In this document: one piece after another, positions 24,074 through 36,200 of the stretch | Layout: each line of letters opens with the position of its first letter | Position numbering within the stretch: position 1 is the first letter of the stretch | Source: Hirundichthys speculiger | Taxonomy: Eukaryota > Chordata > Actinopteri > Beloniformes > Exocoetidae | Reading direction: 5' to 3' | Assembly (NCBI GenBank): GCA_018398805.1 | Contig: JAGFBZ010000936.1 | Location: forward strand, 434,001-498,000 | DNA length: 64,000 nt | Notes under the pieces: model-generated | Told to the model about the DNA's origin: nothing | Databases searched by the model: none | The model's input: only the letters and a program-made list of their open reading frames with translations | Program-made: the position numbers and the translations under genes

Positions 24074-24121
<48 letters not shown>

Positions 24122-25774
24122 ATATATATGCAATTAGATTTTTTTTATTTTATTTTATTTTTAGTATGGCTTTATCTAGTTTTTTTTGTCTATCGGTGAA
24201 ATATAAAACAATAGTAATTTCTTAGCAATTGATTCAACAAGAAATCTTAATGTGATGGTCAGAACAGGGTAGATCCCGTCTATCAGGCCCTTGAGCTTTG
24301 GCCCTGAAAACTCATTCAATAATCCCTTCATGACACACGTAGACCCCGTGGAAGATACGTGGACATGGACTCTGGCTGTCCTGTCATTGTTGACCATGCC
24401 AGTCCAAAATCATGTGCTATGTTAAGCTGCTTCACCTACCCACCTGGTTGAAGGGCCTGCTCCTCGTTAGCAAAACAAACCAAAACACATTAGTGAGATT
24501 GTGTACAGATATCAGATTAGGTGAATGCTCTCATTTGACATTCAACCTATAAAAGTATTCATCTTCTGATTAAGAAAACACACAATGAATCATAGCTTCA
24601 ATGTCAATGACCTTAACTGGAACAGATAGCCCAGGTTGTGATGATAACTTTTGTCATTGTTGTCACAGCTCCTGAGTGTCATCTTGTTTCGGGAAGCTCA
24701 GACAATCGGCTCATCGTCTGGGGAGCTCAGGATGGGAAGGTAAACATGTGCCACATCAGATAAAATTTCTGGCTGTATTGACAGATGGCTAATGAAGCAT
24801 TGTGCTTATTCGTGTGGGGATTGTTTGCTTTTTCTCTTTAACACTGACTTTATGCTTGAGGTGGTAAACTATATGACTTTCTTCCTCAGTTTATCCAGTC
24901 ATATAGTATACCACCTCAAGCATTTATATTATATGACTTTCTTCCTCAGTTTATCCAGTCAGTGGAGTGCAAGGGCCACACTGGTCCCATTTGTGCTGTG
25001 GATGCCCTCTATGTGGAGGGCACGAAGATCCTGGTGGCCTCCTCTGCATCAGACTCCACAGTTAGATTGTGGCTCTGTGATGATGCCAAAGAAGGTAAGA
25101 AAAGTCATTCATGCAGTGTTGCACTGCCCGTTATTATAATGTTGGACAAAACAAGATTTGATTTTAAATGTAATCTGGTTTGATACAACCAAGTGATGTC
25201 ATTTTGTGTCAGTAAGATGCTTAATCAAGGAATGATTTTTCCATTCTCAGATTAACTTGGATGTAATCCATAGGTAACATTGTACAACAATGTTTAATAG
25301 AATAAAAGCAACAGTTTGAAAAATCTGAAAAAGATGAGCATAATTTTGTGTTGTCATCTCGCTGTGCCACTTTTGCTTTTCGGAGTGCCCACTGTATGAA
25401 GTCAGAAACCACGATGGTAACGTTTAGCATAGTATTCTGCAAAAAATAAATAAATAAATAAAGAAGCCATTTTTGGCAGCTGTTGTTGAATGAGTGACTC
25501 CGGTATTCATCAAATACAGATTCAGATCATCAAATCATTTTGATGCATTATTTACATCACAGGCCTCTAACGTCTGGCACAGAGGAGAGTTTATAAAAAC
25601 TAATTTATATCACTTCTGTGGTAATTTTCACAGAGCAGACTGAAAAACCTATTGAACAAACTGGGTGTCTATAAACCTTAAGATAAGAAATCCAAGTGTT
25701 TTTCAGTTTCAGAAAGTTTGTTCAGAGTTAGTTCAGTCAACTTTTTTTTTTTTTTTTTTTTTTAAGTACATGTT

Positions 25775-25810
<36 letters not shown>

Positions 25811-33268: not shown

Positions 33269-36200
33269 GCACAGCTGTCTCAGACTCCCAGCACCCCCTG
33301 CTGAGGACATGTTAACATGTTCCCGTGGCTATGAGTGTCACCACAGAATGATTTGATATAATATGTGAGCCTGCCTCTTCTGTCTCTTGAGATTTAGAAG
33401 CCCTTCGTGGTGGCAAATGAGGATTTTTTTTTTTTAATTATGTCTGCTTATACTGGCAGGGATCAAACCGGACAGCAGGCCCCTGAACTAAATGTGTCAG
33501 TCATGATGTGAAAGCTAAGGACATGCAGGAATAGCAGCATGTGCTCTGTTTACCACCTGTGTGTGTATATTTGGTCTGTGTTCCAGCTGTCTTTTTCACT
33601 GCATCACAGTCAGAAGCCATCCTCTCATAGCTCTGATTATTATTCTGACAGATTACTCACTGAAAGACTTAATTCTTGTGTAGTATGTTGGCTGAGGCTG
33701 TAATGCACATTATAACCCAGAAAACAGAGGCTCGGTTGTTAATAGTCCAACTTGGCTCAACAATTATTAGTGTAATTGTGATCGGCTCTGCTTTAAGCTC
33801 AATACTGAAGCACGTTAAATGAAGTTTATCAGATGAAGCGGCCCTGATAATCATTTTAGATTTGGATCAAAAGACATTTCTGTCTCATTAAACAAAGGAT
33901 GCCCTGGGTATGTTGAACTTGCTCGGAAGTGTAGACCCATGCTGGACTATAGTTTGTTCCAAGAGATTATCCAATCAAAGCAGAAGACATTAGCTTATAT
34001 CCAAATTCAACCTGAAGCAAATGTTATAGTTGTGGGTATGCAGACAGAATCAGCAGAGCAGAGATGTGGTGGATATGTGCTTCCATTACATCCCTGTGCT
34101 GGCAAACTGCTTTTGTGTAAGGATAATAGAAATATGGAGAGCCAGATGTACAATTAGTTAAGAGCAAAGCATTGCTCAGATGCATTGCTTTGATCTGGCT
34201 TTTCACTGAATAGTCCCAGAAACTTTGAAACTTATTGCCTGTTCAAATTAGAAAAGCAAACCTTCACCATAGACAGCTAGAGTCCCTAAAAGCTGGTAGC
34301 CCCCTAAAAAACTCCAGTGCTCGAGGGCCGCTGTCCTTCACATCTTAGATATATTCCAGGTTCAGCACACCTGATTCAAATGTTAACGACCCGACAGGGA
34401 GCAGGGAAACATTTAAGATATGGAGGACAGCGGACCCCGAGGACTGGAGTTGGACACCCCCAATCTAAGATCTGCAACTCCACCTTTGTAGTTTATCAAA
34501 GATTGAAAGGTTTAAACACTCCTTTGAATCAATTCAAAGTAAACCTGCAAGGAAGTCAGGTTTTCACCAGACTAGGGATTCAATTCAATTCAATTCAATT
34601 TTATTTGTATAGCGTCTGTTACAATGACAATTGTCTCTAGGCGCTTTACAGAGACCCAGAGCATGACCCCCGAGCAAATATCATTAACTAAGATTATAAT
34701 ATTAAATCCAATCAGTAATAATGGCAGGTAAAAAACTCCCACGTAGGGAGAAAAAAAAACCTTAATGCCAAACAATGGCAAGGAAAAACTCCACTTTAAG
34801 AGGAAGAAACCTTGAGCAGGACCTGGCTCATATGGGGGGACCCTCCTGCCGAAGGCCAGCCGGGTAGAGAAAGAAAAGAGGGGAGACAGGACAGAGAGAG
34901 GATGGAGGACGGAGAGAAGATGGAGGACAGAAAGAGGAGAGCACACAAATGACTAAATACAATGGCCATATAAACATAAACAGATGGAGGTAGCAGCACT
35001 GGGATGAGATGGCCAGAGGACCAGGTCGCCGATCACCACGTCAGTCGGCACCCAAACACAAGTGGAGGTGAACCCCGGGATGGACAGTGGATGGAACTGC
35101 AAGTCAGCATGAAACCCAGGACACTCTGGCCTGCAAATACACAGAAAGAAAAAGGAGGCAAAACCAGCACAACAAACCAGAGGAAAGCAAAGAATATGGG
35201 GCACAGTTTCAGTAACAAGGTGCTCCCAAATAATTATGAGCTGGAGGAGGAGGAAGGGAGGAGGAAAGGGAAGACAAAGGAGAAAAGCAGTGGAGACACC
35301 ACTCAGCAGATCATGTTGGTGTCCCCCTGTAGCGTAGGCCTATAGCAGCATAGCTATGACGAAGCTGTGATTAAGACGAGCTACTCTAGTCTGAGCTACT
35401 ACAACTATAGTTATAACTATTAGCCCCTACACACTATAGATTAGACTAATTGTAGGCTTTACTAAACAAAAATGTTTTCAATTTAGTTTTAAAAGTGGAG
35501 GTGGTGTCAGCCTCCTTAACCCAAAGTGGTAGCTGGTTCCATAAAAAAGGTGCCTGGTAGCAGAAGGCCCGTCCTCCAAATCTACTTTTAGATATTCTAG
35601 GAACGACGAGTAACCCTGCACTCTGAGAGCGGAGAGCTCTATTAGGAGCATAACATGCTATCAAGTCTTGTAAATAGCATGGAGCTAGGCCATTAAGGGC
35701 TTTATATGCAAGAAGCAGAATTTTAAACTCAATTCGATGCACATTTTGGATTATTTTTTTTATGACCGTTAACCGACGCCCTTTAACGATTAATAATTGT
35801 TAACCGATAAGATTTAAATGCCCTTCCATGCTGCCATTCCGACATACCACCATCCTGAAATACCACTATTCCGACACACAAACGTCCCACCATTCCGACC
35901 CAGCTGACCCGCCCGGGAGAGTTGGCTGCCACGATGTTGTGCGCGTTGTCGTGAACGCATGCAGACACTTTTCCACCAAGTTCCCCATGTCTCCACTGCA
36001 TCAACCAGTTTAGCTGTGAGGTTATCAGCTGTGTGTCTACCCAGCATGCTCTGCGTTAACAGGACGGCAGAATTAACTTTCCAGTACTCATCGATATAGT
36101 GACATGTAATTGTCTCTCTGTTGTGAGCGCGGTCCAGCAGTCCGTTGTAATAGCCACGAACTTAGTACTTGCAAGTCGTGTTTTCAGTTCCTTTTTCCTC

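What the first reader, a model, noticed from the sequence alone, without database searches (positions are those of the whole stretch)
24853..24960. A palindromic 60-bp duplication gives elp2 exon 4 a second, in-frame splice acceptor
A 30-bp block with the polypyrimidine tract, AG and first exon bases is present twice, exactly 60 bp apart. Between the copies is an inverted copy (25 bp, one mismatch) of the sequence just upstream. Inverted plus direct copying is the signature of template switching during replication. Using the first AG (24889) adds 20 codons with no stop (starts FIQSYSIPPQ), so both isoforms would be translatable. The insertion would fall in the loop before a WD40 blade. This is a concrete case of a single mutation creating an alternative in-frame acceptor.
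Basis: seen in the sequence. Interest (0 to 1): 0.75.

Follow-up and report, generated by a model that had tools for sequence, protein, structure and literature searches.

The report
Copied splice site inside a hairpin
In a fish gene, what looks like one copying mistake doubled the signal that marks the start of an exon and built a strong RNA hairpin around the first copy; this may hide that copy, but no RNA data were available to show which copy the cell uses.

Summary
In intron 3 of a fish elp2 gene, 32 identical nt (37 nt at 95%) carrying the acceptor AG occur twice, 60 nt apart, with a 27-nt inverted copy (one mismatch) between the AGs. The locus is single-copy in its assembly. One four-point template switch of the known '4 before 1' class explains all 60 inserted bases with three substitutions. 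Both acceptors are identical from -20 to +12. The second gives the conserved exon; 0 of 139 fetched ELP2 relatives hold any four-residue word of the insert core. Best reading: a mostly harmless insertion, second AG the main site, first looped out or minor. Use of either AG is untested. Against it, the first site is predicted more single-stranded than the second. The open 20-codon extension is expected by chance about one time in ten.

The parts
24669..24739 (+). elp2 exon 3 (ends in phase 0)
   Evidence: Splice-site and homology model of 15 exons giving 540 aa without a stop; 88% identical to Xenentodon cancila ELP2
24844..24848 (+). Candidate branch point CTGAC (A24847): 42 nt from the first AG, 102 nt from the second, 30 nt from the second if the hairpin is skipped
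   Evidence: Pattern match only; paired with 24957-24964 in the predicted fold and paired at 0.99-1.0; not verified
24852..24878 (+). 5' arm of the inverted repeat / hairpin
   Evidence: 27 nt, one mismatch to the other arm
24865..24901 (+). First copy of the direct repeat (polypyrimidine tract, AG, first exon bases)
   Evidence: 37 nt, 95%; 32 nt perfect
24879..24896 (+). 18-nt hairpin loop holding the polypyrimidine tract and AG of the first acceptor (AG at 24888-24889)
   Evidence: Fold; 0.975 unpaired
24890..24949 (+). 60 nt that would be added to exon 4 if the first AG were used; 20 open codons FIQSYSIPPQAFILYDFLPQ
   Evidence: Translation; 0 of 139 fetched relatives hold any of 14 four-residue words of its core
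24897..24923 (+). 3' arm, the reverse-complement copy; its first 5 nt (AGTCA) are microhomology shared with the start of exon 4
24925..24961 (+). Second copy of the direct repeat, with the acceptor AG at 24948-24949
24950..25094 (+). elp2 exon 4 as conserved in relatives (starts FIQSVECKGH)
   Evidence: same spacing in 107 of 139 relatives by pattern

Best explanation
A single short-range, fold-back template switch during DNA replication inserted 60 nt at the acceptor of elp2 exon 4. The growing strand stopped in the first exon bases, paired its AGTCA end with TGACT about 20 nt upstream, copied 22-27 nt of itself backwards, then returned to the template at about 24864 and copied the acceptor region again (mechanism inferred; the sequence fit is shown). 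The result is two identical acceptors. The first lies in the 18-nt loop of a hairpin with 27-nt arms; the second AG ends 26 nt beyond it. In pre-mRNA the hairpin can close before the second acceptor is made, separates the first acceptor from branch points upstream and brings them within about 30-36 nt of the second (inferred from folding and pattern matches). I expect the second AG (24949) to make most mRNA, giving the conserved ELP2, with the first looped out or used at a low level. The insertion is therefore close to neutral rather than a new functional isoform.
For: Direct and inverted copies are confirmed. One four-point event fits all 60 nt with 3 substitutions if the ancestor had T at 24867, 4 otherwise; 0 of 30 shuffled inserts fit. 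Its order, 3-4-2-1, belongs to the '4 before 1' class, which tends to appear as one large insertion (PMC7954356, section 8). The locus is single-copy. The hairpin alone is -39.1 kcal/mol; region z -8.6. Of 14 elp2 acceptors folded with 121 nt upstream, 24950 has z -9.1 and the other 13 lie between -2.4 and +1.8. Mean pairing probability of the 27 hairpin positions is 0.946-0.955 at 15-37 C. 26 of 27 pairs are present once the folded transcript reaches 24923, before the second AG. The second AG reproduces the conserved exon. Duplexes that loop out splice sites and so exclude them are described in a review (PMC7404189, passages).
Against: No RNA data. The first acceptor is predicted more accessible than the second: loop 0.975 unpaired against 0.70 for the second tract and AG, and 0.971 against 0.607 at the splice points; stem-loops can display loop sequence and promote its recognition (PMC11802352, passages). 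The favoured branch-point candidate CTGAC is itself predicted paired with the start of exon 4. Another candidate lies beside the second copy (A24926, 23 nt from its AG), so the second AG may need no hairpin. Without the hairpin, the usual preference for the first AG after the branch point (recalled) would favour the first AG. A few relatives carry short insertions at this same junction, so an insert there may be tolerated. No related DNA was available to show the ancestral state.
Confidence: 0.68

Rival explanations
1. Both acceptors are used: the event created a real in-frame alternative acceptor, and ELP2 exists in this species with and without 20 extra residues.
For: The 23-mers from -20 to +3 are identical. 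The extension is open and in phase. The first tract and AG are single-stranded in the loop, more so than the second. Relatives show insertions at this junction: +15 residues in Syngnathus acus isoform X2, +4 in three others. The model of a relative puts the site beside a two-residue turn.
Against: No insert-bearing protein was found: a search on residues 88-128 had only 8 candidates and none significant, a weak negative because ordinary relatives were not returned either; a wider search (residues 45-175) found 124 relatives, and 0 of the 139 proteins fetched carry insert-core words. The strong hairpin surrounds the first site. The open frame is expected by chance about one time in ten.
Confidence: 0.22
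2. The first acceptor has taken over and this species makes mainly the 20-residue-longer ELP2.
For: Its AG is 42 nt after the CTGAC candidate, while the second AG is 102 nt away; its loop is predicted unpaired.
Against: It would place 20 new residues one residue after a two-residue turn in a conserved protein; the hairpin surrounds the site; the second site may have its own branch point (A24926).
Confidence: 0.04
3. A fold-back mobile element (MITE-like) inserted at the acceptor.
For: A palindrome next to a short direct repeat resembles an element with a target-site duplication (inference).
Against: One arm is the pre-existing flank and the 'target duplication' would be 32-37 nt with the acceptor in it; the only other hit in the 1.04-Gb assembly is the locus's own inverted arm (that search skips very common words).
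Confidence: 0.03
4. The 60 nt are an assembly or library artefact (fold-back chimera).
For: Fold-back artefacts also create inverted copies (recalled); read data were not available.
Against: The three copies of the shared motif differ (TAAAC, TATAC, TATAT); a fresh artefact would be identical. A return switch to the right template and exact continuation into exon 4 are not typical of read chimeras (recalled).
Confidence: 0.03

Closest known systems
Short-range template switch mutations, four-point model, '4 before 1' events (Walker et al. 2021, PMC7954356; abstract and outline, passages, section 8)
   Same: Reverse-complement copy of neighbouring sequence plus return upstream of the start, seen as one insertion; point 2 before point 1, as required for switching on the nascent strand
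   Different: Longer reverse copy (22-27 nt; their gold-standard median 12, maximum 128); lies across a splice acceptor and exon start; direction inferred here without an outgroup
Template switching creating RNA hairpins (Monttinen and Loytynoja 2022, PMC8794818; abstract, section 5, discussion)
   Same: One event builds a near-perfect stem, with mismatches arising later
   Different: Their cases are microRNA and rRNA genes; here the hairpin is in a pre-mRNA and its loop holds a splice site
Template switching between inverted repeats in yeast coding sequence (PMC8604942; seen only in the search listing with the start of its abstract)
   Same: Template switching as a source of change in protein-coding genes
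   Different: Homogenises existing inverted repeats; here a new inverted copy and a new acceptor copy arise
Splice sites looped out by inverted repeats (PMC7404189, passages; the minigene work it cites is probably Nasim et al. 2002, which I saw, like Solnick 1985, only as a reference entry)
   Same: An intramolecular duplex places a splice site in a loop
   Different: The case described is a 5' splice site in a minigene; here it is a natural 3' splice site in an 18-nt loop, next to an identical copy outside; the effect here is untested
Hairpin between branch point and 3' splice site shortening the distance (adenovirus E1A and yeast introns; recalled, no call)
   Same: A stem between the branch-point candidate and the second AG would cut 102 nt to about 30
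   Different: Here the hairpin also carries a full acceptor in its loop; branch point unknown

Membership tests
Short-range template switch mutation (four-point model) | A reverse-complement copy of nearby sequence between two switch points explains the change better than independent changes | tested here: met
   All 60 nt templated with 3-4 substitutions; 0 of 30 shuffled inserts fit; tested by ungapped fit, not by the published pair-HMM
Short-range template switch mutation (four-point model) | Switch-point order compatible with nascent-strand switching (point 2 before point 1) | tested here: met
   Order 3 (24852), 4 (24864), 2 (24878), 1 (24896-24901); rule from PMC7954356
Short-range template switch mutation (four-point model) | Ancestral state confirmed in an outgroup | not testable with these tools
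   The genome search states that the own genome has no relatives there; only protein relatives were fetched
Alternative 3' splice site pair | Two AGs with polypyrimidine tracts in compatible phase | tested here: met
   Identical 23-mers, 60 nt apart, open frame
Alternative 3' splice site pair | RNA shows both junctions | not testable with these tools
   No RNA reads available; protein searches gave no insert-bearing product
Looped-out splice site | Stable duplex whose loop contains the site | tested here: met
   Predicted only
Looped-out splice site | Duplex reduces use of the site | not testable with these tools
   Needs RNA or a minigene
MITE / fold-back transposon | Multiple related copies in the genome | tested here: not met
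   Only the locus itself and its own inverted arm match in G000; very common words are skipped by that search

The most novel reading that the evidence does not exclude
Self-masking splice-site duplication: a template switch that copies an acceptor also builds the hairpin that hides one copy. Such an event is born nearly silent, can persist, and can later be unmasked by stem mutations, temperature or RNA editing, giving template switching a route to new regulated in-frame isoforms.
Probability: 0.3. Interest if true: 0.62.

Novelty: new member of a known kind. Interest (0 to 1): 0.42.

Why it matters
Two acceptors identical from -20 to +12, 60 nt apart in one natural intron, differ in position and in whether they sit in a hairpin loop. 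That makes the question of how far RNA folding overrides proximity in choosing a vertebrate 3' splice site directly testable with one RNA-seq count and a small minigene set. A survey of great apes reports template switches enriched in introns (PMC7954356, passage). I saw no described case at a splice acceptor in my search listings (18 of 18 papers, 10 of 10, 3 of 3, 15 of 48, 5 of 6), titles and abstract starts only, in a library of open-licence papers.

Tried and rejected
Mobile element: rejected as main reading, single copy. Chance inverted repeat: rejected, though a second repeat of score 23 exists in the window. Alternative 14-bp pairing of the second copy with the inverted arm: probability 0.0 against the long hairpin. 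Open frame as evidence of selection: rejected as weak. Retrocopies of elp2 that could record the spliced junction, and copies of the 34.3-kb palindrome, could not be searched because the genome machine did not answer. Structure: one model of the Xenentodon relative, from an alignment of 33 of the 120 proteins listed (mean pLDDT 66.6, pTM 0.53; residues 81-100 at 87-91), was used only to place the junction; the insert-bearing protein was not modelled. Paper searches on splicing hairpins listed 2 of 2 papers, none, 8 of 8 and 15 of 50; (10 of 27 listed) led me to no further paper. The species was not identified; the nearest ELP2 is Xenentodon cancila at 88%, so it is probably an atherinomorph fish (taxonomy recalled).

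Full report
Gene and setting. The window carries elp2 on the + strand. Fifteen exons modelled by splice sites and homology give 540 residues without a stop. The protein is 88% identical to ELP2 of the needlefish Xenentodon cancila, the best of the 120 relatives listed out of 2878 hits. Exon 3 (24669-24739) ends in phase 0 and exon 4 (24950-25094) starts FIQSVECKGH. A 71-residue piece spanning exons 3 and 4 aligns to a solved ELP2 (8avg) without a gap at the junction.

What is there. A 37-nt block occurs at 24865-24901 and 24925-24961 (95%), with inverted arms at 24852-24878 and 24897-24923 (27 nt, one mismatch, 18 nt apart). The two AGs, ending at 24889 and 24949, share 20 identical nt upstream (AG included) and 12 downstream, so a MaxEntScan-type score over -20 to +3 (window recalled) must be the same for both. 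Apart from homopolymer and AT runs it is the best inverted repeat of the window: score 24, against a mean of 11.6 and a maximum of 14 in 60 dinucleotide shuffles; the next non-simple one in the real window scores 23 (34310-34451), so long near palindromes are not unique here. In the 1.04-Gb own assembly, 201 bases around the site match only themselves and their own inverted arm; that search skips very common words.

Origin. With the 60 nt removed as the assumed ancestor, one four-point template switch explains the sequence: leave after 24896-24901, copy 24878-24852 in reverse complement, return at 24864. No untemplated base is needed; there are 4 substitutions, or 3 if the ancestor had T at 24867 as the inverted copy shows. 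Of the four ancestor forms tested, two gave fits (both with 4 substitutions) and two gave none. None of 30 randomly shuffled inserts gave a fit under the same limits. AGTCA/TGACT gives a 5-nt microhomology for the first switch. [quoted passage not shown] One event therefore yields both the direct and the inverted copy. The three versions of the shared motif (TAAAC, TATAC, TATAT) show that substitutions followed or accompanied the event, which speaks against a fresh artefact. No outgroup DNA was available, so direction and age are inferred.

The arms flank the first acceptor, so its pyrimidine tract and AG form the 18-nt loop of a hairpin of -39.1 kcal/mol. The region folds 8.6 standard deviations below shuffles. 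Among the 14 modelled elp2 acceptors, 24950 has z -9.1 and the other 13 lie between -2.4 and +1.8; a window of the same size at the first acceptor, which ends inside the 3' arm, has z -0.6. Folding transcripts that start at 24740 and grow, 11 pairs of the hairpin are present by 24910 and 26 of 27 by 24923, before the second AG is made. Pairing probability averages 0.946-0.955 at 15, 25 and 37 C. These are minimum-energy and ensemble predictions without proteins.

How it probably works. A branch-point candidate CTGAC (A24847) lies 42 nt from the first AG and 102 nt from the second, but only 30 nt from the second if the hairpin is skipped; TTAAC (A24841) gives 48, 108 and 36, and TTTAT (A24852) sits at the foot of the stem. 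This favours the second AG once the hairpin is closed. Against it: CTGAC is paired with the first bases of exon 4 in the predicted fold and paired at 0.99-1.0; a candidate beside the second copy (A24926) lies 23 nt from the second AG, so that site may work without help from the hairpin; and the first acceptor is predicted more single-stranded than the second (loop 0.975 against 0.70; splice points 0.971 against 0.607), which can also aid recognition (PMC11802352, passages). The literature seen supports looping-out as a principle (PMC7404189, passages), not for this site.

The protein side. In 107 of 139 relatives fetched, the spacing from the strand's tryptophan to the next GH is 14 residues; 19 had other spacings, and 13 did not match the pattern, some because their N-terminal part is missing or different; two of those 13 (P0076, P0088) show the standard spacing in the earlier pattern. 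None of the 139 contains any of 14 four-residue words of the insert core. A search limited to the insert and its edges found nothing significant among 8 candidates, a weak negative because it did not return ordinary relatives either; a wider region found 124 relatives, 120 listed. The database is clustered at 90% and may not hold this species, so absence says little on use. Syngnathus acus isoform X2 has 15 extra residues and three others have 4 at this junction, so the position may tolerate insertions. In a model of the Xenentodon protein the junction (94/95) falls beside a two-residue turn between strands 84-91 and 94-102 (overall model weak, this part pLDDT 87-91). The 20 open codons are not evidence of selection: 60 is a multiple of three one time in three, and 29-35% of random 60-mers of this composition are open.

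Verdict. The mutation is real-looking and its origin by template switching is well supported. The claim of a new used isoform is open. I favour the second AG as main site with the first looped out, at 0.68. The kind of event is known; its place, across a splice acceptor with one copy caught in the loop, is what is worth a test.

Noticed in passing
34310-34347 and 34414-34451: Second-best non-simple inverted repeat of the window (38-nt arms, 66 nt apart, score 23) inside the 8.6-kb elp2 intron 7; possibly an old fold-back element. A genome search for copies did not complete.
   Followed up: partly
ELP2 relatives P0122, P0023, P0117, P0134: ELP2 proteins with 15 (Syngnathus acus isoform X2) or 4 extra residues at the exon 3-exon 4 junction, suggesting that upstream acceptors may be annotated or used here in other fish.
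   Followed up: partly
24842-24849 and 24957-24964: The stretch with the branch-point candidate CTGAC is complementary to the first bases of exon 4 and is predicted paired with them, enclosing both acceptors.
   Followed up: partly
25741-25810: A run of T followed closely by a run of A in elp2 intron 4, another fold-back-prone stretch.
   Followed up: no
24074-24132: AT dinucleotide microsatellite framed by TGCA-type ends in elp2 intron 2.
   Followed up: no
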